Of a stretch of 64,000 nt of DNA, positions 861-53,307 are shown in pieces. Position numbers and translations under genes: made by a program. Under the pieces are notes generated by a model, which worked only from the letters and a program-made list of their open reading frames with translations, had not been told where the DNA came from and did not search any database. Every line of letters begins with the position of its first letter. Position 1 is the first letter of the stretch. This stretch comes from Frondihabitans australicus. Its GTDB lineage: Bacteria; Actinomycetota; Actinomycetes; Actinomycetales; Microbacteriaceae. Where the stretch lies: positions 1,364,001 to 1,428,000 of the forward strand of contig NZ_RBKS01000001.1 in assembly GCF_003634555.1 (NCBI RefSeq). The letters are read 5' to 3'.

Positions 861-891
861 GGCGTTCGTGGGCTCCTGCGCCCTGATCGAC

Positions 892-1683
892 TCAGTAGGT
901 CGAGGCGATCAGCTGCTCGGGGACCTCGGCGGCGGCGTCCTTGTCGACGAAGAACACGGTGCGCTTGCGGCCCTTGACGCCCGCCACCGGCACCTGGTCT
1001 TCGCCGGCACCCGCGAGAGCGAGGCCGAGCGAGGCGGCCTTCTCGGCGCCGGCCAGGATCAGCCACACGCGCTGCGAGTTGTTGATCGCCGGCAGGCTGA
1101 GGGTCAGGCGCTCCGGCGGAGGCTTGGGGGAGTCGTCGATGGTGAGGACCGTCGGCGAGGTCTGGAGCACCTGAGGCTTGTCGGGGAAGAGCGACGCGAC
1201 GTGGCCGTCGGGGCCGACGCCGAGGAGCGTGATGTCGAAGCGCGGCGATTCGTCGTCGCCCTGCGCGTGCGCCTTCAGCTCGGCCTGGTACTGCGTCGCA
1301 GCCTCGGCGAGCGACGCCGCCTGCGACGTGTTCGCCATGCGGTGGACGTTCTCGGGCAGGACCCCGATGTGGTCGAGCAGGTCGATGCCGTTCTGCTTGT
1401 CGTTTCGCTCGTCGTCGCCGTCGGCCACGAAGCGCTCGTCGGCCCACCAGAACGACACCTTCGACCAGTCGACGCTGTCGCGGGCCTCGGAGCGGTTGAT
1501 CGCGGCGAGGACCAGGGTCGAGACCGAGCCACCCGAGAGGACGACGCTGGCGTAGTCCTGCTCTTCGATGACGTCGATGATCTTCGTGATGAAGCGGGCG
1601 GCGACGGAGGCCCCGAGGTTCTGCTTGTCGGGGTGTACGAGCACCCGGCGTTCATTCGTCACGTCTGAGTCAGCCTCTATCAC
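892..1683 (-). CDS. pgl: 6-phosphogluconolactonase
   Basis: 263 residues of the glucosamine-6-phosphate isomerase/6-phosphogluconolactonase superfamily, with VVLSGGSVSTLVLAAI (substrate phosphate loop), WADERFVADGDDERN, and LLGVGPDGHVASLFP, all diagnostic of DevB/Pgl. It hydrolyses 6-phosphogluconolactone to 6-phosphogluconate in the oxidative pentose phosphate pathway. The start is uncertain: GTG 1683 gives the full length, while GTG 1662 (VTNERRVLV) has AGAGG upstream and would remove 7 residues. It follows opcA by 38 bases and closes the zwf-opcA-pgl unit. Confidence 0.92.
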   Translation of the reverse strand: MIEADSDVTNERRVLVHPDKQNLGASVAARFITKIIDVIEEQDYASVVLSGGSVSTLVLAAINRSEARDSVDWSKVSFWWADERFVADGDDERNDKQNGIDLLDHIGVLPENVHRMANTSQAASLAEAATQYQAELKAHAQGDDESPRFDITLLGVGPDGHVASLFPDKPQVLQTSPTVLTIDDSPKPPPERLTLSLPAINNSQRVWLILAGAEKAASLGLALAGAGEDQVPVAGVKGRKRTVFFVDKDAAAEVPEQLIASTY

Positions 1684-1721
1684 TGTCGAGACCCGTTGGG
1701 TGCGGGTCGTGAACCGTCAAA

Positions 1722-2672
1722 TCAGTCGTTGCTCGGGTCGGACCGGAGCAGCGCGACTCCGCTCCTGACCACATTGCCGAAGAGCGCGTCTGGGTCGAGT
1801 CTACGGAGTTCTTCGGCCAGGCAGTCACGCAGGCTGCGGCGTGGCAGCGAGAGGTCGTGCGTCGGCTGGCCGGGCTGCGACAGGGTCGCGACGTTGACCA
1901 GCGAGCGCTCGAGCTCGATGGGCCCGGACGCCCGCACGAGCTTCACGCCGTGGATGCCGCTCGAGCCGGTGGCGCGACTGGTCAGCTCGTGATTCACGGG
2001 CACCTGGAGCTGCAGGCGGAGCCAGGCCGCCAGGAGGAGGGTCGAGGGGGAGTCGGCTGCTCCTGAGACCTCGACCGCCGTCACGGGCTCGTACGGGGGC
2101 TGGTCGAGCGCCGCGGCCAGCTGCGTGCGCCAGAGCGTGAGACGGGTCCAGGCGAAGTCGGTGTCGCCGGGCTCGTACGTCGAGGCCAGGTCGATGATCG
2201 ACTGGCGCGGGTTGCTCTGGGCGGCGGCGTCGGTGATCCGGCGCTGCGCGATCCGGCCGAGAGGCGACTCGGAGACCACCGCGGGCGCCTTGCCGGGCCA
2301 CCACGCCACGACAGGGGCGTCGGGCAGGAGCAGGCCGGTCACCAGCCCCTCCTCGTCGCGCGCCACGTCTCCGTACGCCCGGAGGAGGATGACCTCGCTC
2401 GCGCCGGCGTCGCCGCCGACGCGAATCTGCGCGTCGAGGCGGGGGTCGTCGTCGGGGGAGATCTCGTCGTCGGTGGAGATGACGATGACCCGCATCGGGT
2501 GCTCGCGCGAGGCCTCGTTGGCGGCCTCGATCGCCTCCTCCTCGTGGCCGAGGGTCGTGGCGATCACCAGGGTCAGCACGCGGCCGAGGGCGACGACACC
2601 GCCCTCCTCGCGGATCTTGACCAGGGCCTTCGAGACTCGGCTGATGGTGCTGTCGGGCAGATCGACGATCAC
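1722..2672 (-). CDS. opcA: Glucose-6-phosphate dehydrogenase assembly protein OpcA
   Basis: 316 residues beginning MIVDLPDSTISRVSKALVK, the standard OpcA N-terminus in actinobacteria and related to the cyanobacterial OpcA that activates Zwf by oligomerisation. Conserved pieces seen include HPMRVIVIS, EVILLRAYG and VVAWWPGKAP. The GTG start overlaps the stop of zwf by four bases (GTGA), indicating translational coupling of the enzyme and its assembly factor. It has no catalytic motif of its own. Confidence 0.94.
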   Translation of the reverse strand: MIVDLPDSTISRVSKALVKIREEGGVVALGRVLTLVIATTLGHEEEAIEAANEASREHPMRVIVISTDDEISPDDDPRLDAQIRVGGDAGASEVILLRAYGDVARDEEGLVTGLLLPDAPVVAWWPGKAPAVVSESPLGRIAQRRITDAAAQSNPRQSIIDLASTYEPGDTDFAWTRLTLWRTQLAAALDQPPYEPVTAVEVSGAADSPSTLLLAAWLRLQLQVPVNHELTSRATGSSGIHGVKLVRASGPIELERSLVNVATLSQPGQPTHDLSLPRRSLRDCLAEELRRLDPDALFGNVVRSGVALLRSDPSND

Positions 2673-14825: not shown

Positions 14826-14844
14826 GTCGTCTCCGCTGCTCCTG

Positions 14845-14875
14845 CGCCCCCGCCCGCCTCGTGCCGGCGGGGGCG
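14845..14875 (+). terminator. Terminator of the suf operon
   Basis: A 10-bp GC stem (CGCCCCCGCC 14845-14854 with GGCGGGGGCG 14866-14875) and 11-nt loop, 20 bases after the last suf gene. It overlaps a copy of the dispersed 12-mer (14838-14849). Confidence 0.7.
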
Positions 14876-14892: not shown

Positions 14893-14939
14893 GAGAGCCC
14901 CCGGTGCTCCTACAGGGCGCAGGAGCAGCGGGGGCTCTC
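14893..14939 (-). terminator. Terminator hairpin of bioY
   Basis: A long stem, arms 14893-14911 and 14921-14939, paired except for one G-G mismatch, with a 9-nt loop. A second copy of the dispersed 12-mer (14915-14926) forms the loop and the upper right arm. It lies between the convergent suf operon and bioY. Confidence 0.75.
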
Positions 14940-17411: not shown

Positions 17412-18236
17412 TCAGCAGAACTCGCCGGGCTTGCCCTTCGTGTAGGTGACGTCGATCTCGCCGACGACGCCGTGCTCGTCGAGCACGAAGGTGAGCCAGC
17501 GGCCGGACGAGTCCTCGATGCCGTACGTCTCGCCGAACGTGCTGGTCGTGCCGACGGTCGTGCTGAGCGACTCGATGTCCGGGTAGGTCGCCAGGAGGGC
17601 GGCCTGCGTCGATCCCAGTCCAATGCCCGACGGCGTCTTGGGCGAGTCCGCTGCAGGCGACGTGCCGAGCGCGCCGATCATGATGAGGTCGATCCGGTCG
17701 CCCGAGAAGGCCTGCGTCGTGAGCTTCGGGTCGCCGCCGCCGTGCGGCGTGTAGAAGTCGACGGGGCACGCGTAGGCCTGGCGCGCGACGCTGTAGGCCG
17801 AGGCGGCAGCCGCAGCCGCAGCCGTCTGGCTCCCACCGAGGGCGATCGGACCGATGCCGGCGGTCGTGATGGTCCAGCTCGACGGGTCGACCGGCAGCGG
17901 CGTCGCCGTGCCCGCCGGCTCGGAGGTCGGGCCGGGGGCCGAGGTCTTCGACGGGCCCGCCGACGGGACGGTCGAGGGCGCAGGAGCCGAGGTGACGGGC
18001 ACGGGCACCGCCACAGGGCCCTGCGTCGACGCTCCGCCGCCCAGGGCGGCGTAGGCGAGGCCCCCGCCGCCCAGCACCACGACTGCACTCGCGGCGATCG
18101 CCGTGAAGCGGAGCACGCGCCGACGGCGGATCGCCGGAGCGGCGGCGGCGTGCTCCTGCGCCTGATCGTGGACGAGGCGCCGGACCGCGGCGCGGCGGAC
18201 GGGGTCGATGTAGTCGGGTGCGGGTGTGGCGTTCAT
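17412..18236 (-). CDS. Membrane-anchored partner of ECF sigma factor, copy 1
   Basis: 274 residues: cytosolic N-terminus (about 45), one membrane helix (about 46-66), a Pro/Ser/Thr-rich spacer (about 70-120), then an exported domain starting WTITTAGIGPIALGG and ending in a Cys (KPGEFC). It is paralogous to the product of 18909-19748. ATG overlaps the sigma stop (ATGA) and has GGGAG 8 bases upstream. Topology and coupling suggest an anti-sigma or sensor role, but the zinc anti-sigma motif HxxxCxxC is absent, so this is an inference. The spacer contains a copy of the dispersed 12-mer. Confidence 0.7.
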   Translation of the reverse strand: MNATPAPDYIDPVRRAAVRRLVHDQAQEHAAAAPAIRRRRVLRFTAIAASAVVVLGGGGLAYAALGGGASTQGPVAVPVPVTSAPAPSTVPSAGPSKTSAPGPTSEPAGTATPLPVDPSSWTITTAGIGPIALGGSQTAAAAAAASAYSVARQAYACPVDFYTPHGGGDPKLTTQAFSGDRIDLIMIGALGTSPAADSPKTPSGIGLGSTQAALLATYPDIESLSTTVGTTSTFGETYGIEDSSGRWLTFVLDEHGVVGEIDVTYTKGKPGEFC

Positions 18237-21623: not shown

Positions 21624-22346
21624 TCACTCGCGCGGCCGCGGCTGGACGTTCGCGGCGTCCCGCGCCGCCGCGGCCTGCCGCGCGCGCTCGATCCGCTCGG
21701 CCTGCTGGTCGCGGGACTCGGGCTGCGTGTGCGGGGCGGCGTCGCCCGACGACGCGGGCTGGGCGCGACGCGGCTCCGTGCCGGGGGCGTAGGCGGCGTA
21801 GTAGACGCGGGGCTCTTCGGGCGCCGAGCGATTCTGCTCCTGCGCGCGGCGGCGGCGGTCGGCGTTCGCGTCGCGCCCGGACTGCCCTGGGGCGGCGTCG
21901 GCGGGGCGTGGGGGAGCAGGGGTGTCGCGCGGGGTCTCGTCGGCGCCGTCGGCGTGTGGCGCTGCTCCTGCGCCCTGGGGGTCGTAGCCGGTGAACTCGG
22001 TCGGGCGGTACAGCTCGACGCCGCCCGGGCGCTCGACCTCGCCCGCGGTGCCGTCGTGGCCCGCGTTCGCGATGACGACGGCGAAGTAGGGCAGCACGAC
22101 CGCGGCGATGGCCGGGGCGAGACGCCACCAGCCGGGCACGAAGAAGACGGCGATCACACAGATCGTGCGGATGCCCATCGAGATCGCATAGCGGACCATG
22201 CGCGCCCGCTGCTCGTCGCGGGGAGCCGGGGGCAGGCTCGTGATCGTGTTCGAACCGCCGTTCAGCGGTGTCACGCGCGACTTCTTGCTCTTGATCTTCA
22301 TACGCTCACGGGCTCGGGTGGCATCGCGGTCGGATGCACGCTCCAT
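21624..22346 (-). CDS. DUF3099 membrane protein
   Basis: 240 residues. Core (about residues 30-100) matches DUF3099: SLPPAPRDEQRARMVRYAISM, then two membrane helices (TICVIAVFFVPGWWRL and AIAAVVLPYFAVVIANAG). The remaining 130 residues are a disordered Pro/Arg/Gln-rich tail that contains a copy of the dispersed 12-mer. ATG 22346 is used; ATG 22301 (MKIKSKK) is nearly as good. It lies 16 bases before the small Cys/His gene and probably starts that operon. Function unknown. Confidence 0.82.
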   Translation of the reverse strand: MERASDRDATRARERMKIKSKKSRVTPLNGGSNTITSLPPAPRDEQRARMVRYAISMGIRTICVIAVFFVPGWWRLAPAIAAVVLPYFAVVIANAGHDGTAGEVERPGGVELYRPTEFTGYDPQGAGAAPHADGADETPRDTPAPPRPADAAPGQSGRDANADRRRRAQEQNRSAPEEPRVYYAAYAPGTEPRRAQPASSGDAAPHTQPESRDQQAERIERARQAAAARDAANVQPRPRE

Positions 22347-31941: not shown

Positions 31942-34023
31942 GTGACTCCTGACAGCCCGACCGTGCCCTCGCCCTACGCCGATCGGCTCGACGGGCTCCA
32001 GATCGAGGCACGGCGCGTCACGGCCGGGGAAGTCGACACGGCCTACTGGGTCTACGGCGACGACGACGCACCTCAGACGCTGCTGATGGTGCACGGCTTC
32101 CGCGGCGAGCACCACGGCCTCGAGCCGATCGCAGCCCACCTCGACGGCCTTCGCGACGGCTCGCTGCGGGTCGTCGCGCCCGACCTTCCCGGATTCGGGG
32201 CGTCCGCGCCGTTCCGCGGGCGGGAGCACAGCGTGCCTTCGTACGCGAAGTGGCTGGTGGCGTTCTCCGGGGCGCTCGGACTCGGCCCCGGGGTCGTGGT
32301 GCTCGGGCATTCGTTCGGGTCGATCGTGTCGGCGGCGGCTCTCGCCGGGGCGCCCGGGCGGCCGGCACTGCCGGCGGCGCGGCTGATCCTGGTCAACCCG
32401 ATCGCTGCTCCTGCGCTCAAGGGGCCCCGAGGGGTCTTCAGCCGGCTCGCAGTGCTCTACTACTGGGCCGGGGCCGCGCTGCCCGAGGTGCTGGGCGAGC
32501 CCGCGCTCAAGAGCCGCTTCGTCACGCGCGTGATCAGCGAGGCTATGGCGAAGACGCGGTCGAAGCCGCTGCGGTCGTGGATCCACGACCAGCACGACGT
32601 CTACTTCTCACGCTTCGCCGACCGGCAGGTCGTGCTCGAGGCGTTCAAGGCGTCCGTCTCGACCGACGTGTCGACGTACGCCTCGGGCATCGCGCAGCCG
32701 ACCCTGCTGGTGGCCGCCGACCGCGACGACGTCACGGCGCTTCCCGCGCAGTACGCGCTTCAGCAGAAGTTCGCTCGCGCCGAGCTCGACGTGATCCACG
32801 GGGTCGGGCACCTGATCCACTATGAGAAGCCGCGCGAGGCGGCTCTCGCGATCGGGGACTTCCTGGCTCGCGGCGAGGCGTCGTTCACGCCGGCATCGGG
32901 GGCAGATCTGGGCGCAGGAGCAGCAGACCGCCCGCTCGACATCCTGCTCGACTGCCGGTACGTGCGCACGGGGCAGCACGACGGCATCAGCCGATTCACC
33001 GCGGGCCTCGTCACCGCCCTCGCGCCGCTGGCGGCCGCTCGGGGCCATCGTCTCCGCCTGCTCGTGAGCGACCGCCGCCAGCTCTCGAAGTTGCCCCGGC
33101 TGCCCTTCGTCGTGGGGACCGATCCGACCAGCCCGTTCGAGCCGCTCGTCGCGACCCGGATCAACCGCCTCGCGCCCGACATCGTCTGGTCGCCCATGCA
33201 GACGATGGGCACCTTCGGGCGCGGCTACCGCCTCGTGCTCACGCTGCACGACCTCATCTACTACACGAACCGGACGCCGCCGCCCGAGTTCAACCCCGTG
33301 ATCCGTATGCTGTGGCGGGCGTACCACCTGGCGTGGTGGCCTCAGCGGCTCCTGCTCAACCGGGCGGACGCCGTTGTCACGGTGTCGTCGACCACGGCGG
33401 CGGCGATCGCCGAGCACCGGCTCACGGCGCGGCCGGTGTCGGTGGTGGCGAATGCCGCGGATCCTGCGCCCTCTGGCCTTGTCGCGCGCACGGCGCCCGC
33501 GACTCGCGACCTCGTCTACATGGGGTCGTTCATGCCGTACAAGAACGTGGCGACGCTCGCTTCGGCGATGCAGTCTCTCGCGGCGGACGGGTACCGGCTG
33601 CACCTGATGAGCCGGGTGTCGCCCGCCCAGCGCGCGTCGCTCTCGGCGCTCGCCCCTGCCGGATCGCTCGTCTTCCACGACGGGGCGTCGGACGACGAGT
33701 ACCAGGCGGTGCTGCTGGGTGCGACGGCCGTGGTGTCGGCGTCGCTGAACGAGGGGTTCGGGATTCCGCTCGTCGAGGGCATGGTGCTCGGCACGCCGGC
33801 CGTGGTGAGCGACATCCCGATCTTCCGCGAGATCGGCGGGGAGGCGGCGATGTACTTCGAACCGTCGTCGCCTGCGTCGGTGGCGGCTGCGGTGCGGCGG
33901 GTGTCGGCGCCCGACGAGTGGGCTGCGCGGAGCGCGGCGTCGCTGGCGCAGGCCGCTCGGTTCAGCTGGGATGCCTCGGCCGGGGTGCTGCTCGACCTGC
34001 TGGAGCGGACGGCACGAGGCTAG
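31942..34023 (+). CDS. Alpha/beta hydrolase-GT4 glycosyltransferase fusion
   Basis: 693 residues in one open frame. Residues 1-315 are an alpha/beta hydrolase: LMVHGFRGEH (oxyanion), GHSFGS (nucleophile, about 122), and a catalytic His in GVGHLIHYEKP (about 287). Residues 330-693 are a GT4-type glycosyltransferase: LLDCRYVRTGQHDGISRF, LTLHDLIYYTNR, YMGSFMPYKNVATL and NEGFGIPLVEGMVLG (about 602). The linker (residues 318-330) is encoded by a copy of the dispersed 12-mer. Leaderless: TAGACT (31930-31935) six bases before GTG. Substrates are unknown; a coupled acyl and sugar modification is one possibility. Confidence 0.85.
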   Translation: MTPDSPTVPSPYADRLDGLQIEARRVTAGEVDTAYWVYGDDDAPQTLLMVHGFRGEHHGLEPIAAHLDGLRDGSLRVVAPDLPGFGASAPFRGREHSVPSYAKWLVAFSGALGLGPGVVVLGHSFGSIVSAAALAGAPGRPALPAARLILVNPIAAPALKGPRGVFSRLAVLYYWAGAALPEVLGEPALKSRFVTRVISEAMAKTRSKPLRSWIHDQHDVYFSRFADRQVVLEAFKASVSTDVSTYASGIAQPTLLVAADRDDVTALPAQYALQQKFARAELDVIHGVGHLIHYEKPREAALAIGDFLARGEASFTPASGADLGAGAADRPLDILLDCRYVRTGQHDGISRFTAGLVTALAPLAAARGHRLRLLVSDRRQLSKLPRLPFVVGTDPTSPFEPLVATRINRLAPDIVWSPMQTMGTFGRGYRLVLTLHDLIYYTNRTPPPEFNPVIRMLWRAYHLAWWPQRLLLNRADAVVTVSSTTAAAIAEHRLTARPVSVVANAADPAPSGLVARTAPATRDLVYMGSFMPYKNVATLASAMQSLAADGYRLHLMSRVSPAQRASLSALAPAGSLVFHDGASDDEYQAVLLGATAVVSASLNEGFGIPLVEGMVLGTPAVVSDIPIFREIGGEAAMYFEPSSPASVAAAVRRVSAPDEWAARSAASLAQAARFSWDASAGVLLDLLERTARG

Positions 34024-35023: not shown

Positions 35024-36199
35024 GTGACCTACGCGCCCGCCTCCGCGCCCGTCCGACCGCCGCTGCGCTTCGTCGTGCCGCCCGGATGGCCCGAGCCGTC
35101 GCCGTCGTGGGTGTCGCGCAACCAGGGCTGGCAGCCACCCGCAGGCTGGGTGCCTCCGGTCGCCGCGGGGTGGCCGCGTCCTGCCGCCGCACCCCGAGGC
35201 TGGTCTTTCTGGGCGCAGGAGCCCGGCGCCTGGAGCTCGTTCCGAGAGCCCTACCGCCGCGCCGCGCTGAGCCAGATCCGCGTCGGGGCGATCTTCATGG
35301 GCGTCGGCTTCGGAGTCACGCTGCTGGGGCTGCTCGGTGTGCTCGGGCCGGTTTTCCTGATCCTGTGGGGGCCTGTGATCTTCGGCGCGATCAGGGTTGT
35401 GACGGGCCTCGTGAACCTGCGCCGCGCGGATGCCCACGCCCGGGCGGCGCTCGCCTCGCGCGCCCTGCAGGTGCGCAGCGCACAGGACGCGGCCCTGTAC
35501 CCGCAGTACCTGGCCGAGACCGCCGCCACGCGCGCGGCCACGGGGCAGCCGGCGATGTTGCTGGAGCAGCTGTCGTACGCGCTGGACTCCGAGCCATGGG
35601 GGAGCGCGACGCCGCGGCAGGCGACGCTCGCACCGGTCGGTGGGTCGTACGGTTCGGGGTCGATCGGCGGGGCTTACGGCGCGTACGGCGCCTACGGCTC
35701 GGGCTACGGGGCGGTGTCGCCCTGGGCGCCCCCGGTCGTCGAAGCGCGGCGGTCGGAACTCAGCGTGCGCAAGCGCTTCTGGATCCCGCTCGCGTCGATC
35801 GGCGCGGTGCTGATCGTGCTCGTCGCCATCGGGGCGGTGACCGACCTCAGCCATTCGCCGGCGTCGAGTGCGGGAACGGGTGTCACCGACAGCACCGGCC
35901 GCCACTGGCCGCCGAACACCGGCAACTACAGCCTCAGCGGGGTGAAGTACGAAATCGTCGACTCCGGGCCGTGCAGCACGTCGCTGGGATGCATCCAGGC
36001 CGACATCACCGCGCCCACGGCCTGCGCGTCGGCGACGATCACGTGGGGCTTCTCGGACGCCGCCAACGGCGACGACAAGGCGGTGCGCGCGAGCACGGTG
36101 ACTTTCGTGGCCGGGCAGACGGAGCATGTGTCGATCCCCGAGGACTCCCAGCTGGAGCCTCTGAAGTACATGTTCCTCGACAGCATCACCTGCGCGTGA
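35024..36199 (+). CDS. Membrane protein with Pro/Trp-rich N-terminus, unknown
   Basis: 391 residues. N-terminal 60 residues are rich in Pro and Trp (PPGWPEPSPSW, GWQPPAGWVPP), a form seen at the start of many actinobacterial membrane proteins. Two membrane helices lie near 85-125 (IFMGVGFGVTLLGLLGVLG), a Gly/Tyr-rich spacer (GGAYGAYGAYGSGYGA) near 205-225, a third helix near 255 and an exported C-terminal domain with four Cys. GTG 35024 has AGGAG 6 bases upstream. Its stop overlaps the next gene. A dispersed 12-mer copy lies in the N-terminal part. Confidence 0.7.
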   Translation: MTYAPASAPVRPPLRFVVPPGWPEPSPSWVSRNQGWQPPAGWVPPVAAGWPRPAAAPRGWSFWAQEPGAWSSFREPYRRAALSQIRVGAIFMGVGFGVTLLGLLGVLGPVFLILWGPVIFGAIRVVTGLVNLRRADAHARAALASRALQVRSAQDAALYPQYLAETAATRAATGQPAMLLEQLSYALDSEPWGSATPRQATLAPVGGSYGSGSIGGAYGAYGAYGSGYGAVSPWAPPVVEARRSELSVRKRFWIPLASIGAVLIVLVAIGAVTDLSHSPASSAGTGVTDSTGRHWPPNTGNYSLSGVKYEIVDSGPCSTSLGCIQADITAPTACASATITWGFSDAANGDDKAVRASTVTFVAGQTEHVSIPEDSQLEPLKYMFLDSITCA

Positions 36200-41767: not shown

Positions 41768-41855
41768 GTGCGACGCGGCGCGGCCACGCGAACCGCGAAC
41801 GCGGGGTTGGCGCAGGGCGCAGGATCCTGCGACACTGACCGCCGAAGGGGGAGTC

Positions 41856-44648: not shown

Positions 44649-44730
44649 ACGGTAGTGTCTCGCATCCTGCGCCCTGGGTCGGCGCAAGGCGTGCACGCTC
44701 GACGGTTCGAGGGCTCGCTACGCTGACGCC

Positions 44731-44982: not shown

Positions 44983-45020
44983 TCGGCGCGTCGCGACGTG
45001 ACGCGCGGGCCTCGCGGCCG

Positions 45021-45074: not shown

Positions 45075-45106
45075 GCGCGTAGAGTCGGCGCATCAGAGGG
45101 GGAGCC

Positions 45107-45253
45107 ATGAGGGTTCTGCGTGTGACCGGCAGGGTGTTCTCGGCGCTGCTGCTGACCATCGCGAAGACGATCGGCGGCATGCACGGGTCGCGGACGTTCG
45201 ACCACGACAACGCGACGTCGATCTACCGCCGGCGCGAGGACTACCGGCCGTAG
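45107..45253 (+). CDS. Tiny DYRP-tailed protein, copy 2
   Basis: 48 residues: MRVLRVTGRVFSALLLTIAK, GGMHGSRTFDHDNATSIY, and C-terminus RREDYRP. Related to 41126-41284 by the tail and by the promoter GCGCGTAGAGTCG and GGGGGAGCC site before ATG. The middle could be a short amphipathic or membrane helix. Its last codons overlap the stop of the convergent gene at 45241. Confidence 0.68.
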   Translation: MRVLRVTGRVFSALLLTIAKTIGGMHGSRTFDHDNATSIYRRREDYRP

Positions 45254-45564
45254 CGCTCGGCCGCGAGGCGCACGAGTTCGTCGAGGACGGCGCGGCCGGT
45301 GCTGAGCACGTCGTCGGCCGGCGGCCCGATGCTCGGCAACACGATGAGATTCGTCGATCGGGCGTGCACGCTGGCCGTGCCGTCGCCGTTGTCCGCGAAG
45401 TCGAATCTCGTCGTCTCGGCGCGGAACGCCAGGTTCGTCCTCACGCCGACGAGAGCGTACGCGTCGTCGACGTCGATGAGACTGGCATGCGGCACCGCCG
45501 CGACGGCCTGCCGGATCAGACCCGGCACAGCGGCGATCGGCGCGGCGACTCTGACGGTGGGCAC
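45241..45564 (-). CDS. Unknown 107-residue protein
   Basis: Soluble alpha/beta protein (TVRVAAPIAAVPGLIRQAV, ASLIDVDDAYALVGVRTNL, RFDFADNGDGTASVHARS, DVLSTGRAVLDELVRLAAE). The pattern resembles a small START-like fold, an impression only. Leaderless: TACTCT (45576-45571) six bases before the GTG start. Ends by overlapping the tiny gene by 13 bases. Confidence 0.68.
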   Translation of the reverse strand: MPTVRVAAPIAAVPGLIRQAVAAVPHASLIDVDDAYALVGVRTNLAFRAETTRFDFADNGDGTASVHARSTNLIVLPSIGPPADDVLSTGRAVLDELVRLAAERYGR

Positions 45565-45589
45565 GGCCTCAGAGTAGGCGCCGCCGAGG

Positions 45590-45910
45590 AGGGGTGCGAT
45601 GTCACGAGTTCGGGAGGAAGTTCTCCCTCCCGGACGGACACGGGGCTGCACGCGTGGCGCGCCTGGTGCCATGGTGCACGTCCGGGAGGAGAAAAGTCCT
45701 CCTGAAGGCCTGCAAACGGGCCCGCCGGAGAGAACGCGCGACGGCGGGGAGGAAATCGGCGCGGTCGATCCTCCCCAACGAGTCGTCGTCACGCCGATTT
45801 CCTCCCGAGTGCGCGTCTTCGGGCCATTCCTCCTCCCGAAACGGCGGCGAGTCCTCCCGAGCCGAACGCCCCGACAAACGAAAGACGCCAGGGGAGGAAG
45901 CGCCTCCTCC
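45590..45910. repeat. Non-coding block of GGGAGGA/TCCTCCC inverted repeats
   Basis: The 361-base gap 45565-45925 holds no convincing gene. It contains about eleven copies of GGGAGGA or its complement: plus at 45612, 45681, 45745 and 45892; minus at 45623, 45696, 45770, 45800, 45830, 45852 and 45904. They form hairpin pairs, for example GAGGAAATCGGCG (45749-45761) with a perfect complement at 45792-45804. The unit resembles ribosome-binding sequence held in stems. Confidence 0.65.
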
Positions 45911-45925
45911 CGCTAGCGTGAGCCC

Positions 45926-46948
45926 ATGGAGAAGGTCGAGCTCACCACCGAGCGGCTCACCCTGCGCGCGCCCCAGCCGCGAGACGCCGACGAGATCGCG
46001 ATGGCCTGCCGCGACGAGGGGATTCAGCGCTGGATCCCGCTGCCCGACCCCTACACCCTCGACAGCGCCCGCGCCTTCGTCGCCGAGCACAGTGACGCCG
46101 GGTGGGCCGCCGGCACGGCGTGCGTCTGGGCCATCGTCACGAGCACGGGGTTCGCCGGCGTCATTGAGCTGAACAACCTCGGCGGGCAGTCGTCGATCGG
46201 CTACTGGCTCCGGCCGCAGGATCGAGGCCGAGGCCTCATCGACGAAGCCGCCAGGGCCGTGCTCGACTTCGCCCTCAGCCCGGCTCCCGCGGGTCTCGGC
46301 CTGGACCGCATCGAGTGGCGCGCCTTCGCCGGCAACGACGCGTCGGCGCGGGTGGCCGCGCGCCTCGGGTTCCGGTTCGAGGGCACTCGGCGGGCCAGCG
46401 CGGTGATCCGCGGCGAGCGTCGCGACGAGTGGGTTGCGGCGATCCTGCGCGGTGATCCGCGCGAGCGGGTGGAGTGGGACGTCGCGGGCATGTGGGAGGA
46501 CGCCGCCGATGATCGCGTGAAGGCGGCGGTCGGGGTGGAGAGTCAGACGCTGACGGTCGCCGAGATCACGGCGGTGCTGGGCCTGGAGCCCGATCTGTCG
46601 TGGAACAAGGGCGAGCGGCGACCCACGGCACCGCCCGACATGCCGATCGAGCCGGCGTCGTTCACGTTCACGTCGTGGTCGATCGAGTCGCGGCTTCCGA
46701 CGACGGCCTCCGACGACGAGCACCTGGCGCACCTATGGGATCGCGCCTCGGCGGCGATGGCGCGCGTGCCTCTCCTCGACGGCGACGTGAAGCCGTGTCT
46801 GTTGCTGGTGCGCAAAGTCGACGGCCGCACGGGGCAGGGCCATGGCTTCGGATTCGAGTCGCCGTGGCTCGAGCTCATGGGCAGGATCGGGGGAAGCATC
46901 GAGGTCGACCAGTACCTCCTCCGCACCGGTCCCGACGGCGACGACTGA
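45926..46948 (+). CDS. GNAT acetyltransferase-DUF4279 fusion
   Basis: 340 residues. Residues 1-185 are a RimJ/RimL-type GNAT domain: LTTERLTLRAPQPRDADEIA, WAIVTSTGFAGVIELNN, QSSIGYWLRPQDRGRGLIDEA (acetyl-CoA loop), ARVAARLGFRFEGTRR. Residues 200-340 match DUF4279: TVAEITAVLGLEPDLSWNKG and a Trp-Ser-Ile-Glu-Ser strand. The family is often involved in modifying protein N-termini or small molecules; the target is unknown. Leaderless: TAGCGT (45914-45919) six bases before ATG. Confidence 0.82.
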   Translation: MEKVELTTERLTLRAPQPRDADEIAMACRDEGIQRWIPLPDPYTLDSARAFVAEHSDAGWAAGTACVWAIVTSTGFAGVIELNNLGGQSSIGYWLRPQDRGRGLIDEAARAVLDFALSPAPAGLGLDRIEWRAFAGNDASARVAARLGFRFEGTRRASAVIRGERRDEWVAAILRGDPRERVEWDVAGMWEDAADDRVKAAVGVESQTLTVAEITAVLGLEPDLSWNKGERRPTAPPDMPIEPASFTFTSWSIESRLPTTASDDEHLAHLWDRASAAMARVPLLDGDVKPCLLLVRKVDGRTGQGHGFGFESPWLELMGRIGGSIEVDQYLLRTGPDGDD

Positions 46949-46979
46949 CCCGCCGCCCGCCGCCTCGTAGGCTGACAGC

Positions 46980-47219
46980 ATGCCTCCTCCTGCCGGGGGA
47001 GTCGTCCTCGGGAGGCCTCAGCTCGCAGCCCCGCCTCAAGGTCGACGGAGGCAGGGTCGCGTGGGGGGAGCCGCAGCCGGCTGCGCCGCTGCGTGGGGGG
47101 AGGCTGCCGCGACACAACGCGACACCTGCGACGCTCCGTGGCGTCGCAGCCGTCGCGTTGTGTCGCCAGAAGGGTCGCCAGACGGGTCGCCAAACGGGGC
47201 AGACAGAGCACTAGGGTGA
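46980..47219 (+). other. Leaderless start signal with non-protein-like frame
   Basis: TAGGCT (46968-46973) stands exactly six bases before ATG 46980, like the real leaderless genes nearby. The 79-codon frame is, however, low-complexity (Gly, Ala, Arg) and runs through a 58-nt hairpin repeat. It may be a decayed gene or the start of a small RNA. Not accepted as a protein. Confidence 0.3.
47109..47166. repeat. 58-nt hairpin repeat, copy 1
   Basis: Outer stem GCGACACAACGCGAC (47109-47123) pairs with 47152-47166; inner stem CTGCGACGC (47126-47134) pairs with 47141-47149, loop TCCGTG. Same length and layout as 49417-49474. Between the two copies the outer pair C-G changes to A-T on both arms. Confidence 0.85.
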
Positions 47220-47223
47220 CGGC

Positions 47224-47583
47224 ATGACCGAGTCGCTGCCAGAGCCGACGCAGGCGCGCGCCACGTCGCCCGCGTCCTCGCCCCCGCCCGCTCGCACGAC
47301 CTCGGGCATCGCCGTCGCTGACGACTCCGTCCGCGCGACGAACCCGTGGGGTGTGGTGATGCTTGTCGGGGCCGGCCTCTTCGTGATCGTCGGCCTGATC
47401 GTGTGGTCGTACGGCGACATCTCGGCGAACGCGACGTTCGACAACGCGACCGGCCCCACTCACGACCAGCTGGCACTCATCCAGCACATCACGGGCCTCG
47501 TGCTCGTCGGCTTCGGAGTGCTCACCGTCCTCTTGCGCATCGCTGTCGAGGCCGTGCGCTGGACGCCTCGCGCGCGCGACTGA
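47224..47583 (+). CDS. Small membrane protein, unknown
   Basis: 119 residues: polar N-terminus, then two helices (WGVVMLVGAGLFVIVGLIVWS and LALIQHITGLVLVGFGVLTVLL) separated by a polar outer loop. Resembles other two-helix proteins in this zone (43018, 47593). Leaderless: TAGGGT (47212-47217) six bases before ATG. Family unknown. Confidence 0.68.
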   Translation: MTESLPEPTQARATSPASSPPPARTTSGIAVADDSVRATNPWGVVMLVGAGLFVIVGLIVWSYGDISANATFDNATGPTHDQLALIQHITGLVLVGFGVLTVLLRIAVEAVRWTPRARD

Positions 47584-47592
47584 CGCGGTCGG

Positions 47593-47910
47593 TCAGCTCT
47601 CGCCCTGGATCGCCCGGAGCAGGACGCCCGTCGCGACACGGACCGTGAGCACCACGGCACCCGTCGCGGCGACGATCCACGAGGCGATGACCGCGACCGG
47701 CGACAGGGTGAGCCGCGAGACGCCCTGTGCCTGATACACGTGTGTGCCCATCGCCGGCAACACGAGCACTCCGACGCCGATCACGACGAGAGCGACGCCC
47801 AGCGCCGAGAGGGCGCGAAGAGCCGGTGGTGCGGCGCGTCTCGTGGCAGGCGCGCCACTCGCATCGACACGTGGACGGGCGCCCTGCGCCTCCCAGTCAC
47901 CGTCGGTCAT
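47593..47910 (-). CDS. Small membrane protein, unknown
   Basis: 105 residues with two helices (LGVALVVIGVGVLVLPAMG and IASWIVAATGAVVLTVRVA). N-terminal 40 residues are polar and Ala-rich. ATG with GGGGGGATC just upstream; the leader is about 40 bases. Convergent with the two-helix gene 47224-47583, 9 bases apart. Confidence 0.68.
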   Translation of the reverse strand: MTDGDWEAQGARPRVDASGAPATRRAAPPALRALSALGVALVVIGVGVLVLPAMGTHVYQAQGVSRLTLSPVAVIASWIVAATGAVVLTVRVATGVLLRAIQGES

Positions 47911-48109
47911 GATCCCCCCGTTCGCCGCGCGAAGGGCGGCATCGTCACGCAAGGGTAGCCGCCTGCCCGGCCGCATCGCACGCACGCGTTCGGGGGGCCG
48001 CCGCGGGCCGTGGCAGCGGCGGAGGCCGCGCGGGCTTCCCTGATCCTGCGCCCTGCTCGCCCCGCCCGAGGCGAGCCCAAGGTCGGCGGCTTCTGGGAGA
48101 GTAAGCGGC

Positions 48110-48532
48110 ATGGACCTCGAGGTGACGCCGGCGCTGACGATCCCCGGCGCCGAGCTGCGCTGGCGCTTCTCGCGCTCGTCGGGGCCGGGCGGGCAGCACG
48201 TCAATACGTCCGACTCGCGCGCACAGCTGTCGTGGAACGTCGCGACCAGTGCAGCTCTCGACGACGAGACCCGGGCGATCCTGCGCGAAAGGCTCGCCCC
48301 GAGACTCGTTCGCGGCGAGATCACGGTCAGCGCGAGCGAGCAGCGATCGCAGCTGCGCAACCGCGAGACCGCACGCGCCCGGCTCATCGCCCTGATCGTC
48401 GACGCCCTGGCGCAGGAGCCACCCGAACGCCGCCCGACCCGACCGTCACGCGGTGCCGTCCGCCGCCGCCTCGACGACAAGGCCCGCCGGTCGACGACGA
48501 AGGCCCAGCGCCGCCGCCCGCCCCTCGACTAG
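48110..48532 (+). CDS. arfB: Alternative ribosome rescue factor ArfB-like (release-factor family)
   Basis: 140 residues. The catalytic GGQ motif is in SSGPGGQHVNTSDSR, and a basic C-terminal tail (RRRLDDKARRSTTKAQRRR) fits the ArfB/YaeJ family, which frees peptides on stalled ribosomes by entering the empty mRNA channel. It lacks the codon-recognition domain of RF1 and RF2. ATG start; no clear SD. An intergenic 12-mer copy lies at 48042-48053. Confidence 0.88.
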   Translation: MDLEVTPALTIPGAELRWRFSRSSGPGGQHVNTSDSRAQLSWNVATSAALDDETRAILRERLAPRLVRGEITVSASEQRSQLRNRETARARLIALIVDALAQEPPERRPTRPSRGAVRRRLDDKARRSTTKAQRRRPPLD

Positions 48533-48540
48533 CCTCACGC

Positions 48541-48595
48541 CTCCCAAAAACGACTCTGCACATGCGAAATCACGTGCGCAGAGTCGTTTCGGGAG
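48541..48595. terminator. Hairpin between convergent genes
   Basis: CTCCCAAAAACGACTCTGC (48541-48559) pairs with GCAGAGTCGTTTCGGGAG (48578-48595) with one bulge. It begins 9 bases after the ArfB stop and ends 3 bases before the phosphotransferase stop, so it can end both transcripts. Confidence 0.7.
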
Positions 48596-48597
48596 GG

Positions 48598-49365
48598 TTA
48601 GCGACCCCAGGCGCCGCCGAGCAGCATGTCGCCCTCGCCCCCGGGCAGGAACGGGTCGAACCCGTGCGCGGCGAGCCACCGGATGTTCGTGAGGCACCGC
48701 CACGACCACCACGCCTCGACGAGCGAGGCGTCGACCGGCATGTGCCCAGAGGCCTCGTACCCGTCGAGCAGGTCCGGCAGCCGCGCCGCATGCCCCAGCG
48801 TCAGCGTCGCCAGGTCGAACAGCGGATCGCCCGGCCCGCCCTCCGACCAGTCGATGATCCCCGTGACACGAGGGTTCGCGCCGCCACCCTCGACGAACAC
48901 GTGCTCGGGCTGCAGATCGCCGTGCGTGAAGGCCGGCTCGAACGATCGCACGACGCGCGAGGCGAGCTCCTGGTGCCTGATCACGACCGACACCGGCAGG
49001 ATCCCCTCGCCGACGAGCGCCTCGCACTCCCGCGCCAGCACGTCGATCGTGGCGGCCGGGCGCCCGGGCAGCGCAGGAACGGGCGCCTCATGAAGCCGCC
49101 GCACCACCGCCCCGACCGCCCGCCACACCGACGCCGGAGCGGACGACACCTCGCCGAGCCGAGCAAGCCTCTCGCCCCGAACCCGCGCGACGGCCATCGC
49201 CTGCGGCTGCCGCCAGAGCACCTCGCCGGTCGGCACCGGGGCGAGATCCATCGCCGCCAGCTCGCGGTCGAGGCGCGCAGGATCCGAGTCGATCTTGATG
49301 AAGACGTCCCCGGCCCGCACCGTCGCCCGCTCCGCGTGCGCGACGACCACCTCGACTTCACTCAC
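48598..49365 (-). CDS. Aminoglycoside phosphotransferase-like kinase
   Basis: 255 residues. APH fold: N-terminal FIKIDSDPARLDRELAAM (ATP-binding Lys), HGDLQPEHVF (catalytic Asp), and GIIDWSEGGPGDPLFDLATL (metal-binding Asp). Substrate unknown; this group includes antibiotic kinases and sugar or choline kinases. GTG 49365 is chosen for AGGAGG nine bases upstream; ATG 49374 is too close to that site. Confidence 0.85.
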   Translation of the reverse strand: MSEVEVVVAHAERATVRAGDVFIKIDSDPARLDRELAAMDLAPVPTGEVLWRQPQAMAVARVRGERLARLGEVSSAPASVWRAVGAVVRRLHEAPVPALPGRPAATIDVLARECEALVGEGILPVSVVIRHQELASRVVRSFEPAFTHGDLQPEHVFVEGGGANPRVTGIIDWSEGGPGDPLFDLATLTLGHAARLPDLLDGYEASGHMPVDASLVEAWWSWRCLTNIRWLAAHGFDPFLPGGEGDMLLGGAWGR

Positions 49366-49416
49366 GGCGCCCATCCTCCTCCGCCCGCCGTTCCTCGCGC
49401 GCGCCCGCCCGCCCGC

Positions 49417-49474
49417 GCGACAAAACGCGACACCTGCGACGCGCCGGAGCGTCGCAGATGTCGCGTTTTGTCGC
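49417..49474. repeat. 58-nt hairpin repeat, copy 2
   Basis: Outer stem GCGACAAAACGCGAC (49417-49431) with 49460-49474; inner stem CTGCGACGC (49434-49442) with 49449-49457; loop GCCGGA. Same 58-nt plan as 47109-47166 with a compensatory pair change in the outer stem. It lies between two minus-strand genes. Confidence 0.85.
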
Positions 49475-49487
49475 AGGTGGCGGAGAG

Positions 49488-50126
49488 TTACGCGTCAGCC
49501 CGGTTCTCGAGCGCGTTCTGGTACCCGAACGCATACCGCCCGGCGGCCTCCGACATGACCTCGATCGGGTCGTCGAACGCGACGAGCGACAGCGCGCCGT
49601 CGACCACCTGGAAGGAGTGGATGGACCCGTTGCGGATCGGCACGCCGGCGTTGGCATCCTGCTCAGGAGCCACGTGGTTCACGATCGCGCGGATCACGGC
49701 GCCGTGCGTGGCCACGACGACGACCTGCCCGGTGCACGACGCGGCGATCTCGAGGAGGGCCGACTCGACGCGCTCGAGGAGCGCGGTGCGGCTCTCGCGG
49801 CCGGGAACGGGGGCGCCGTCGGGGAACGACGCCTCGACCTCGTCGAAGGTCATCCCCTCGGCCTCGCCGTACGAGCGCTCGATCATGCGAGGCGCGATCG
49901 TCGGCGACGGCAGCCCGAGGTGCGACGCGATGATCGCACCGGTGTCGAAGGCGCGCTGCAGCGGGCTCGCGTAGACGGCGTCGAAGTGCCGGCGCGACAG
50001 GAGCTCGGCCGCAGCCAGGGCCTGCTGGCGCCCCAGCTCGTTGAGCGCGATGTCGGTCGCGCCCTGGATGCGGCGCTGGCGGTTCCAGTCGGTCTCGCCG
50101 TGGCGGACGAGGTAGAGCAGTGTCAT
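49488..50126 (-). CDS. Histidine phosphatase (phosphoglycerate mutase-like)
   Basis: 212 residues. Starts MTLLYLVRHGETDWNRQRRI, the RHG motif of histidine phosphatases, with VYASPLQRAFDTG and ATHGAVIRAIVNH giving the second His. Such proteins are often phosphatases of small molecules (CobC, PhoE or glucosyl-3-phosphoglycerate phosphatase), so the exact substrate is unknown. ATG with GGAG upstream. Confidence 0.9.
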   Translation of the reverse strand: MTLLYLVRHGETDWNRQRRIQGATDIALNELGRQQALAAAELLSRRHFDAVYASPLQRAFDTGAIIASHLGLPSPTIAPRMIERSYGEAEGMTFDEVEASFPDGAPVPGRESRTALLERVESALLEIAASCTGQVVVVATHGAVIRAIVNHVAPEQDANAGVPIRNGSIHSFQVVDGALSLVAFDDPIEVMSEAAGRYAFGYQNALENRADA

Positions 50127-50216
50127 GGGGGATTCTCCAGGAGCGGAGGGCGTTCCTGATCCTGCGCCCCACCCGGACCCGCCGCGACAGCGCGACGACC
50201 CGAGCAACACGCAGGC

Positions 50217-51131: not shown

Positions 51132-51929
51132 TTGCGAATCACCCCGATCTCCGACCTCGACCGCCCCGAGCTCGCCGACTACTCGCGGCTCACCGACGTG
51201 TCGCTGCGTCGCAAGACCGAGCCGGCGGGCGGCCTGTACATCGCCGAGTCGACGAAGGTGATCACGCGCGCCCTCGCGGCCGGGCACACGCCGCGGTCGG
51301 TGCTGCTCGCCGAGAAGTGGCTGCCCGACGTCCTGCCGCTGGTCGAGGCCTATGACGGCGACGTCTTCGTCGGCGACGACGCCCTGCTCGAAGAGCTGAC
51401 CGGGTACCACCTGCACCGGGGCGCCCTGGCCGCGATGCACCGCCCACCCCTGCCCGAGGTCGCCGAGCTGCTCGAGGGCGCACGGCGCGTCGTCGTGCTG
51501 GAGGACATCGTCGACCACACCAACGTCGGGGCCATCTTCCGCGCCGTCGCCGGCCTCGGCGCCGATGCCGTCTTCATCACGCCGCGGTGCGCCGACCCGC
51601 TCTACCGGCGGAGCGTGCGCGTGTCGATGGGCACGGTGCTGCAGGTGCCGTGGACGCGCCTGCCCGAGTGGCCCGAGGCGCGCGAGCAGCTCCACGGCGC
51701 CGGGTTCGAGATCGCCGCCCTGGCCCTCAGCGACGACGCGGTGACACTCGACGACTACGCCGCCACGCCGCCCGAGCGCGTCGCGATGGTGTTCGGCACC
51801 GAGGGCGACGGGCTGTCTCGCCATGCCCTCGAGTCGGCCGACACGGTCGTCACGATCCCGATGCTGCACGGCGTCGACAGCCTGAACGTGGCCGCGGCGA
51901 GCGCCGTGGTGCTCTGGGCGCTGCGGTGA
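51132..51929 (+). CDS. TrmH/SpoU family RNA 2'-O-methyltransferase
   Basis: 265 residues. N-terminal substrate-binding part (FYIAESTKVI type: GLYIAESTKVITRALAAG), then SPOUT knot motifs: VVLEDIVDHTNVGAIFRAVA, MVFGTEGDGLSRHALE and IPMLHGVDSLNVAAASAV. It methylates ribose in rRNA or tRNA. TTG start (51132) fits MRITPISDLDRPEL; SD is weak. Its stop overlaps the GTG of the next gene. Confidence 0.9.
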   Translation: MRITPISDLDRPELADYSRLTDVSLRRKTEPAGGLYIAESTKVITRALAAGHTPRSVLLAEKWLPDVLPLVEAYDGDVFVGDDALLEELTGYHLHRGALAAMHRPPLPEVAELLEGARRVVVLEDIVDHTNVGAIFRAVAGLGADAVFITPRCADPLYRRSVRVSMGTVLQVPWTRLPEWPEAREQLHGAGFEIAALALSDDAVTLDDYAATPPERVAMVFGTEGDGLSRHALESADTVVTIPMLHGVDSLNVAAASAVVLWALR

Positions 51930-53191
51930 GGCGCACCGAGGCGAAGGTCACAGCGCGCAGGAGCCGACGCCGGTTCGGCCTGGTCGTCGGCATCGTCGTC
52001 GTCGTGGCGCTCGGCCTCTACGTGCCGGCGAGCCTGCTGGCGCCCGCCCCGGCGAGCGCAGGCGTCGCGACGACGTACACGGCGCCGAGCCAGGCGGCGA
52101 CGAGCGTCGACCTGCCGAGCTACGGCGGGTCGGCCATCGAGGCTGTCGGCTACAAGGGTTCGCTCGTGACCCACGACCCGTCGACCCCCCGCTCGATCGC
52201 GTCGATCAGCAAGATCGTCACCGCGCTCGTCGTCTTGCAGAAGAAGCCGCTGAACGGCGGGAACGGCCCCACGATCACGATCACCCCGACCGAGCAGGCC
52301 TACTACAAGACCTACCTCGCGCAGGACGGCGAGGTCGCGACGATGACGGTCGGGCAGAAGCTCACCGAGCGGCAGGTGCTCGAGGTCGCCCTGATCAAGT
52401 CGGCGAACAACTACGCGACCACGCTGGCGATCTGGGCCTACGGCTCCATCCCCGCCTACCGGGCGGCGGCGGCGACCTGGCTGAAGCAGCACGCCCTCGA
52501 CCACACGACGATCAACGAGCCGACGGGCCTCGACTTCAAGAACAAGTCGACCCCGACCGACCTCCTCACGCTCGGCAGGCTCGCCCTGGCGAACACCGAC
52601 GTCGCCACCATCGTCTCGACGGCGGAGACCACCGTGCCCGGCGTCGGCGAGATCGAGAACTCCAACGGGCTCCTCGGCAAGGACGGCGTCGTCGGCATCA
52701 AGACCGGCACCCTCGACAAGGTCGGCGCGAACCTCCTCTTCGCCACGAAGCAGGAGGTCGACGGCCACGAGGTCGAGCTGATCGGCGTGGTGCTCGGCGG
52801 CCCCGACCACGACACCATCGACACGGCGATCGGGCGCATGCTCGCCCAGGTGACCGCGAAGTTCCACGTGGTCACCGCGGTGTCGAAGGGCGCCGTCTAC
52901 GGCACGTACGCGACGCCCTGGGGTGCGACGGCCCGAGCCGCGACGACCCGTTCGGCCTCGAAGCTCGTGTACGGCACGGCGACGGTGTCGGCACACGTGA
53001 AGCTCGACCACGTGGCGGTCCGGGGCGCAGGAGCCCACGTGGGCACCATCCGCGTCACCATCGGCTCGTCGACGACCACGGTGCCGCTCGCGCTCGACGG
53101 TCCGATCGAGGCCCCCTCGGCCTGGTGGCGCCTCACGAATCCTCGGGCGACGTTCGGCGGTGCGGAGGCGGCGGTCGCGGAGCGGTTCTAG
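51926..53191 (+). CDS. D-alanyl-D-alanine carboxypeptidase (peptidase S11)
   Basis: 421 residues. N-terminal membrane anchor or signal (FGLVVGIVVVVALGLYVPASL), then the penicillin-binding motifs: SISK near 93-96 (nucleophile Ser), SANN, and KTGT near 258-261. It trims cell-wall peptides. The C-terminal 130 residues are a beta-rich domain not needed for catalysis. GTG overlaps the upstream TGA. Its last 19 bp with the stop are tandemly duplicated. Confidence 0.9.
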   Translation: MRRTEAKVTARRSRRRFGLVVGIVVVVALGLYVPASLLAPAPASAGVATTYTAPSQAATSVDLPSYGGSAIEAVGYKGSLVTHDPSTPRSIASISKIVTALVVLQKKPLNGGNGPTITITPTEQAYYKTYLAQDGEVATMTVGQKLTERQVLEVALIKSANNYATTLAIWAYGSIPAYRAAAATWLKQHALDHTTINEPTGLDFKNKSTPTDLLTLGRLALANTDVATIVSTAETTVPGVGEIENSNGLLGKDGVVGIKTGTLDKVGANLLFATKQEVDGHEVELIGVVLGGPDHDTIDTAIGRMLAQVTAKFHVVTAVSKGAVYGTYATPWGATARAATTRSASKLVYGTATVSAHVKLDHVAVRGAGAHVGTIRVTIGSSTTTVPLALDGPIEAPSAWWRLTNPRATFGGAEAAVAERF

Positions 53192-53211
53192 CGTCGCGGA
53201 GCGGTTCTAGC
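53174..53211. repeat. Tandem 19-bp duplication over a stop codon
   Basis: GTCGCGGAGCGGTTCTAGC at 53174-53192 and again, unchanged, at 53193-53211, and a partial third start (GTCGCCGAGCG) after it. The first copy includes the carboxypeptidase TAG stop. Confidence 0.85.
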
Positions 53212-53307
53212 GTCGCCGAGCGCGGTGCCGCGGATCCTGCGCCCGGGGGTTCGTGCGCCCGCGCGCGCGTCGGGGTACCCTCGACGCAGATCACACCTGG
53301 GGGAATC

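What the first reader, a model, noticed from the sequence alone, without database searches (positions are those of the whole stretch)
872..53244. A 12-base word, GGGCGCAGGAKC, repeated 13 times exactly across the window
Exact copies: plus strand 14915, 17976, 32910, 35211, 41815, 53023; minus strand 872, 14838, 21964, 33460, 48042, 50158, 53233. With about 70% GC and independent bases I would expect roughly 0.1 copies by rough calculation. Seven lie in intergenic DNA, though that is a small part of the window, and the rest in spacers, tails or variable protein regions. Orientation is balanced, so it does not behave like a polar replication or Chi word. It may be an uptake-type word, a nucleoid protein site, or a small mobile core.
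Basis: partly seen in the sequence, partly recalled or inferred. Interest (0 to 1): 0.8.

Follow-up and report, generated by a model that had tools for sequence, protein, structure and literature searches.

The report
Dialect-forming DNA-uptake-like genome word
A plant-associated actinobacterium carries one 12-letter DNA word hundreds of times more often than chance, relatives carry related words in their own dialects, and the pattern looks like the self-recognition tags that some bacteria use when they take up DNA.

Summary
In detail: 13 copies (0.07 expected), 644 in the whole genome against 10 for the reversed pattern. The genus is Frondihabitans. The real unit is an almost fixed core, CGCAGGAKC, with a preferred GGG/GGT prefix. 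It is non-polar, about 3-fold denser between genes, has 11 close inverted pairs against 1 direct, and coding copies are mostly not insertions. All six other Frondihabitans genomes are enriched, with dialects. Unexpectedly, much of the family Microbacteriaceae carries another word, GCGGATGCCG (up to 1268 against 109), which stays near background in 19 other families of the order. Best reading: a DNA-uptake-sequence (DUS/USS) type system of monoderm Actinobacteria, in which Frondihabitans changed its word. ComEC is nearly universal (245 of 249). Type IV pili are only loosely associated: 23 of 25 word-rich, PilM-negative genomes show no type IV prepilin, so a type IV pilin receptor is unlikely to be the general answer. 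Binding and uptake are untested; a chromosomal protein site is the main rival.

The parts
872..883 (-). word copy GGGCGCAGGAGC, intergenic, convergent gap
14838..14849 (-). word copy GGGCGCAGGAGC, intergenic, convergent gap; inverted pair with 14915
14915..14926 (+). word copy GGGCGCAGGAGC, intergenic, same convergent gap
17976..17987 (+). word copy GGGCGCAGGAGC inside a gene call (17412-18236 minus)
21964..21975 (-). word copy GGGCGCAGGAGC inside a gene call (21624-22301 minus)
32910..32921 (+). word copy GGGCGCAGGAGC inside a gene call, in a stretch wholly or largely missing from five of the six relatives aligned there
33460..33471 (-). word copy GGGCGCAGGATC inside a gene call; G003 has GGGCGCAGGATC at the same aligned place, gapless
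35211..35222 (+). word copy GGGCGCAGGAGC inside a gene call; G003 aligns gaplessly without a word
41815..41826 (+). word copy GGGCGCAGGATC, intergenic; overlaps a minus-strand core, giving CGCAGGATCCTGCG
48042..48053 (-). word copy GGGCGCAGGATC, intergenic, divergent gap
50158..50169 (-). word copy GGGCGCAGGATC, intergenic
53023..53034 (+). word copy GGGCGCAGGAGC inside a gene call (51926-53191 plus)
53233..53244 (-). word copy GGGCGCAGGATC, intergenic
60618..60629 (+). GGT-prefixed form GGTCGCAGGAGC (the most enriched one-mismatch class)
60907..60918 (-). GGT-prefixed form GGTCGCAGGAGC
62801..62812 (+). GGT-prefixed form GGTCGCAGGATC

Best explanation
The word is the local dialect of a DNA-uptake-sequence-like system in Microbacteriaceae. 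Proposed working: the competence machinery binds or admits DNA that carries the word; the DNA passes through ComEC and recombines. Alleles that carry the word are therefore over-supplied, and point mutations that create words accumulate at poorly constrained sites, between genes and in variable parts of proteins. Drift in the receptor's preference would produce dialects: GCGGATGCCG-type words in much of the family, GCAGGA-type words in Frondihabitans. Shown here: over-representation, non-polarity, near-fixed core, intergenic and convergent-gap enrichment, inverted pairs, origin of coding copies mostly without insertion, dialects at genus and family level, and the presence of ComEC, ComEA and a type IV pilus operon in this genome. 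Inferred: preferential binding or uptake, the receptor, and the drive. The receptor is unlikely to be a type IV pilin in general, since many word-rich genomes show none. A Tad/Flp pilus or a ComEA-level component is my guess.
For: Counts: 644 against 10 reversed; 69 against 1.9 expected. One-base variants of the nine core positions total 29 against 18.5 expected, beside 69 perfect words; a very strong consensus is described as typical of USS and unlike ordinary binding sites in PMC1626085 (passages). Non-polar: 134 plus, 127 minus over 21 stretches. Location: 25 of 69 intergenic and 2 partial, against 11-13% non-coding for permuted words; convergent gaps hold 9 words in 9.8 kb, divergent 5 in 28.1 kb. 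Inverted pairs 11, direct 1, within 120 bp. Mostly not insertions. Dialects in the genus, with different forms at aligned sites, e.g. L120:525 GGGCGCAGGAGC here and GGGCGCAGGATG in G003. Family word GCGGATGCCG: ratio (count+3)/(reversed+3) at least 5 in 87 of 249 genomes, at least 10 in 42. In 274 genomes of 19 other families the plain ratio stays at or below about 4 wherever the control is 10 or more. ComEC in 245 of 249. Type IV pilus operon and ComEA. PilM-positive genomes have a higher median ratio (4.8, n=123, against 2.5, n=126). Natural transformation is reported for two Microbacteriaceae (PMC11577799, passages), and Tad-dependent competence for an actinobacterium (PMC4322843, passages).
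Against: No uptake or binding was measured. 27 of 126 PilM-negative genomes have a ratio of 5 or more, and 23 of the 25 with ratio 6 or more have no N-methyl prepilin at E 0.01. 24 PilM-positive genomes outside Frondihabitans have a ratio under 2.5, though their own dialects were not sought. ComEC is nearly universal, so it hardly discriminates; of the 4 genomes without a match, one (G180, 88% complete, 200 contigs) is word-rich, 194 against 29. The PilM association is not corrected for phylogeny. No bias towards gene ends inside genes (12 of 182 within 60 nt against 224 of 1988 controls), unlike Pasteurellaceae (abstract of PMC2346458). In G068 and G093 the family word is almost all coding (39 of 43 and 25 of 26). 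Spacing is random-like. Coding words lie in indel-rich places (47 of 172 pairs gapped against 656 of 9947), and 11 of 57 sites have no gapless relative.
Confidence: 0.57

Rival explanations
1. Binding site of an abundant chromosomal protein (nucleoid organisation, occlusion, repair) that co-evolved with its site in each lineage; the words are kept by selection inside the cell.
For: Genome-wide, non-polar, fewer in low-GC stretches; present in genera where type IV pili were not found and in one genome without a ComEC match (G180).
Against: No gradient visible along the 21 sampled stretches. Small near-miss surplus in the core (29 against 18.5), whereas sites of regulatory proteins usually show a relaxed consensus (PMC1626085 passage). 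Word places in genes are the fast-evolving ones (identity 74% against 83% in gapless pairs), which argues against strong site-by-site selection.
Confidence: 0.23
2. Chi-like or other polar word for recombination, replication or FtsK.
For: G-rich, asymmetric, hundreds of copies.
Against: Balanced on both strands overall (134 against 127) with no strong local skew (largest 7:3 and 2:5); intergenic and convergent-gap enrichment; inverted pairs. The origin was not located.
Confidence: 0.07
3. Core of a small mobile or REP/RAYT-type repeat.
For: Inverted pairs, and palindromes (CGGATGCCGCGGCATCCG) in G146; species-specific forms; strong consensus; coding words in indel-rich places.
Against: Flanks carry only weak preferences; 42 of 69 lie in genes; 46 of 57 aligned coding sites gapless in a relative, 0 with whole-word gaps in all; in-place substitutions in Salinibacterium. 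RAYT genes were not searched.
Confidence: 0.05
4. By-product of codon usage, terminators or mutation bias.
For: Some copies lie in terminator-like hairpins. Frame preferences exist: in G068 22 of 39 coding copies share one frame and orientation; in this genome full words in genes are 28 in the gene's direction, 14 against it.
Against: Markov models and permuted words do not reproduce the counts; core words in genes are 104 with and 100 against the gene, in several frames; intergenic density is higher; congeneric genomes differ in the word.
Confidence: 0.04

Closest known systems
DNA uptake sequence (DUS) of Neisseriaceae
   Same: Short over-represented word, dialects along phylogeny, two forms within one genome (K = G or T here), some inverted pairs in terminator-like places (dialects: PMC3630211 passages; terminators: PMC12616744 passages)
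   Different: Different sequence and phylum; binding, uptake and a ComP receptor not shown; present in genera in which no type IV pilin was found
Uptake signal sequence (USS) of Pasteurellaceae
   Same: Very strong consensus, family-wide variants, not insertions (PMC1626085 passages)
   Different: No bias towards gene ends in this genome (abstract of PMC2346458); monoderm host; receptor unknown
Chi sites / KOPS (recalled)
   Same: G-rich asymmetric words in hundreds of copies
   Different: Not strand-biased; enriched between genes
Highly iterated palindrome HIP1 of cyanobacteria (recalled)
   Same: Over-represented word across a whole group, function open
   Different: HIP1 is a palindrome; this word is asymmetric and forms dialects

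Membership tests
DUS/USS | Word vastly over-represented against a Markov model | tested here: met
   69 against 1.9; 644 against 10 reversed
DUS/USS | Both strands, genome-wide, non-polar | tested here: met
   134 against 127 over 21 stretches of one genome
DUS/USS | Arises by substitution, not insertion | tested here: met
   46 of 57 coding sites gapless in a relative, 4 of 172 pairs with whole-word gaps; substitutions in place; but word places are indel-rich
DUS/USS | Dialects that follow phylogeny | tested here: met
   Genus dialects, family word near background in the other families sampled; no tree was built
DUS/USS | Intergenic excess and inverted pairs | tested here: met
   Met in G000 and G146; intergenic excess not seen in G068 and G093
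DUS/USS | Bias towards gene termini (Pasteurellaceae only) | tested here: not met
   12 of 182 against 224 of 1988 controls within 60 nt of an end; a property of one branch, not a general criterion
DUS/USS | Host has a DNA uptake machine | tested here: met
   ComEC 7 of 7 in the genus (in G003 split over two frames) and 245 of 249 in the family; prepilins 7 of 7 in the genus; competence of Frondihabitans itself not tested
DUS/USS | Type IV minor-pilin receptor (ComP, ComN) | tested here: inconclusive
   Four prepilins in the G000 operon, but 23 of 25 word-rich PilM-negative genomes show none
DUS/USS | Word raises binding, uptake or transformation | not testable with these tools
   needs experiment
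Chi/KOPS | Orientation bias along the replichore | tested here: not met
   origin not located, but no strong local skew
REP/RAYT or small mobile element | Copies present as insertions with shared flanks | tested here: not met
   RAYT genes not searched

The most novel reading that the evidence does not exclude
Microbacteriaceae possess a self-DNA uptake word system of monoderm bacteria, diversified into dialects across the family, switched to a new word in Frondihabitans, and read in many genera by something other than a type IV pilin, so that uptake words evolved a third time with a different receptor.
Probability: 0.41. Interest if true: 0.88.

Novelty: new variant of a known kind. Interest (0 to 1): 0.77.

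Why it matters
DUS and USS are the classic cases of self-recognition in bacterial gene exchange and are known, to my recollection, only from two proteobacterial families. A family-wide, dialect-forming word in Actinobacteria would make the old question, whether such words arise by receptor bias or are selected as self-tags, testable in an independent lineage. That lineage has natural variation in pilus type, including genera in which no type IV pilin was found. It would also give a practical handle for transforming a poorly tractable group.

Tried and rejected
Mobile core: rejected for coding copies. Polar word: rejected on strand counts. Even spacing as reported for some USS (recalled): not found, gap CV 1.09 against 1.02 random. 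Gene-end bias: not found. Simple equation of the word with type IV pili: weakened. ComEC as a discriminator: nearly useless because nearly universal. The total forward and reverse counts of whole circular genomes say nothing on polarity and are not used for it. Phage Min1 as a carrier: 1 copy of CGGATGCCG against 1.8 expected; one phage only, and its host genus was not tied to a word-rich G genome, so little weight. No structure prediction was run, no tree was built, and RAYT and Tad genes were not searched. Paper searches: the rows listed name no report of such a word in Actinobacteria. I saw listings and abstract starts. Listed of held: 1 of 1, 5 of 5 (18), 15 of 68 (33), 20 of 34 (45), 3 of 3 (46), 10 of 164 (61), 10 of 21 (62), 7 of 7 (74), 15 of 1,051 (75), so this is no proof of absence, and most subscription journals are not in the library. 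In the two most relevant papers that hold the string GCGGATGCCG it is part of a probe and of a primer (PMC12089995 and PMC3388099, one passage each). Passages only were read of PMC12616744, PMC11577799, PMC1626085, PMC4322843, PMC3630211 and PMC6370729, and the outline with abstract of PMC2346458.
Full report
The observation. With up to two mismatches there are 96 matches against 40 expected. The window is C1:1364001-1428000 of a single-contig genome of 4,036,723 bases, which has 317 forward and 327 reverse copies, and 5 and 5 copies of the reversed pattern.

The unit. I read 20 stretches of 20 kb besides the window, 464 kb in all. An order-4 Markov model puts the reverse complements of the two forms first and third among 12-mers. 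Among 69 full words, single-base variants are in clear excess at positions 1-3; at positions 4-12 they total 29 against 18.5 expected, while both G and T are accepted at position 11 (35 and 34). Weak preferences lie outside: A before the word, C or A and then G after it. CGCAGGAGC has 132 copies (31 expected) and CGCAGGATC 129 (33 expected); CGCAGGAAC and CGCAGGACC are below expectation.

Where it sits. With a gene finder of my own, 25 of 69 words are intergenic, 2 straddle a gene end and 42 are inside genes; permuted words are non-coding in 11-13%. Convergent gaps carry 9 words in 9.8 kb, tandem 11 in 34.4 kb, divergent 5 in 28.1 kb. Neighbouring cores within 120 bp are inverted 11 times and direct once, and some make stem-loops, e.g. 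L061:8981; most of the 261 cores are single. Strands balance over the 21 stretches (134 plus, 127 minus). In genes, full words run 28 with and 14 against the gene, cores 104 and 100. The three stretches under 66% GC hold 8 cores (3.5 expected), the rest 253 (38.8 expected). Spacing is random-like. Inside genes there is no pull towards gene ends.

How copies arise. Against six relatives (73-79% identity in the longer matches), coding words lie in fast places: gaps in 47 of 172 site-relative pairs against 656 of 9947 random places, identity 74% against 83% in gapless pairs. Yet 46 of 57 aligned coding sites are gapless in at least one relative, 4 of 172 pairs lack the whole word, and no site lacks it in all. 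Relatives sometimes carry a different form at the same place: at L120:525 and L120:7854 this genome has a GGGCGCAGGAKC word and G003 has GGGCGCAGGATG. In six Salinibacterium-group genomes (76-89% identical) words of the family type come and go by one or two substitutions in place, although a few sites lie in poorly aligned stretches. This follows the test used for Haemophilus USS in PMC1626085 (passages).

Dialects. All 7 genomes of the genus are enriched for the 12-mer, 35 to 644 copies; outside the genus the highest of 243 family genomes has 14. De novo k-mers give related words elsewhere in the genus: GCGCAGGATC in G001, CAGGATGCGA and CAGGATCGCG in G003, GCAGGATGCCC in G004, GCGCAGGAACTC in G005, GCGCAGGATC and GGGCAGGATC in G006; G002 is weaker (CAGGATCCGA; 60 kb only).

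The family. Sampling Salinibacterium and Pseudolysinimonas showed an excess of GGATGCCG words. GCGGATGCCG reaches 1268 against 109 reversed in G146, 1209 against 88 in G133 and 897 against 45 in G110, and is at most 1.9-fold in the six Frondihabitans genomes of that sample (115 against 90 in G000). The ratio with a pseudocount of 3 is at least 5 in 87 of 249 genomes. The reversed control contains TAG and may run low, so I checked stretches with Markov models: CGGATGCCGCG 73 against 3.4 in G146, CGGATGCCG 86 against 17.6 in G068, CGGATGTCGC 36 against 3.9 and CGGATGCCGC 47 against 6.9 in G093. In G146, 19 of 45 are intergenic and palindromic pairs occur; in G068 and G093 nearly all are coding. 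Of 297 order genomes, the 274 of 19 other families stay at or below a plain ratio of about 4 where the control is 10 or more; a few with controls of 0-2 exceed that on tiny counts, such as 8 against 1.

Machinery. The own genome has a type IV pilus operon: two ATPases, PilC, two pilins of the PilA type, two further prepilins, a large protein behind them, a prepilin peptidase, PilM and two following genes. The Pfam scan supports the ATPases, PilC, the four prepilins and PilM; the large protein had no Pfam match, and the rest I named by position and sequence look. ComEA has HHH and SLBB domains and ComEC is at 1,069,539. The two further prepilins are among the most divergent proteins of the operon (33-58% against 85-88% for PilC). 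ComEC is in 245 of 249 family genomes; one of the four without a match, G180, an 88% complete draft, is word-rich. PilM is in 123 of 249 (122 over the cut-off). Word ratio is higher with PilM (median 4.8 against 2.5, Mann-Whitney p about 1e-7, uncorrected for phylogeny). But 27 of 126 PilM-negative genomes reach 5, and 23 of the 25 with ratio 6 or more have no N-methyl prepilin at E 0.01. Two Microbacteriaceae transform naturally (PMC11577799, passages).

Verdict. The word behaves like a DUS/USS in most features that sequence can show; the exceptions are the gene-end bias of one branch, the random-like spacing, and the loose tie to type IV pili. I do not file it as a proven member, because binding, uptake and receptor are untested. 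The main rival is a chromosomal protein site.

Noticed in passing
window about 49395-49465; also L049, L053, L054, L062, L064: A second repeat, GCGACAAAACGCGACACCTGCGACG, faces an inverted copy of itself across a short variable loop: a REP-like hairpin, 9 matches of its middle on both strands in 464 kb.
   Followed up: partly
window about 36000-49500: Only short matches in six congeners, scattered in their genomes, while 49.5-56 kb is matched in all six: an accessory segment.
   Followed up: no
G003:C1:2981383-2982173: ComEC of this Frondihabitans matches in two different reading frames, so it may be broken (or a sequencing error); its dialect signal is the weakest of the five relatives sampled at 180-200 kb.
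   Followed up: no
G006 contig C2: F. sucicola has 18 prepilin matches, 15 of them on a second contig, against 3-5 in the other genus members.
   Followed up: no
G004 stretches L074-L076, L089-L091, L180-L183: GTGGAGTCTC occurs 24 times against 0.6 expected, a separate repeat in this species.
   Followed up: no
G125 (genus g51), G100 (g14), G297 (another family): GCGGATGCCG is rarer than its reversed control (3 against 27, 10 against 33, 4 against 28), possible avoidance.
   Followed up: no
G167 (genus g85): Enrichment is small (84 against 45) within a genus of which other sampled members reach up to 1256 against 66: a possible loss or dialect change.
   Followed up: no
window 45021-45079 and 53174-53222: Short tandem repeats of 18 and 19 bases.
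   Followed up: no
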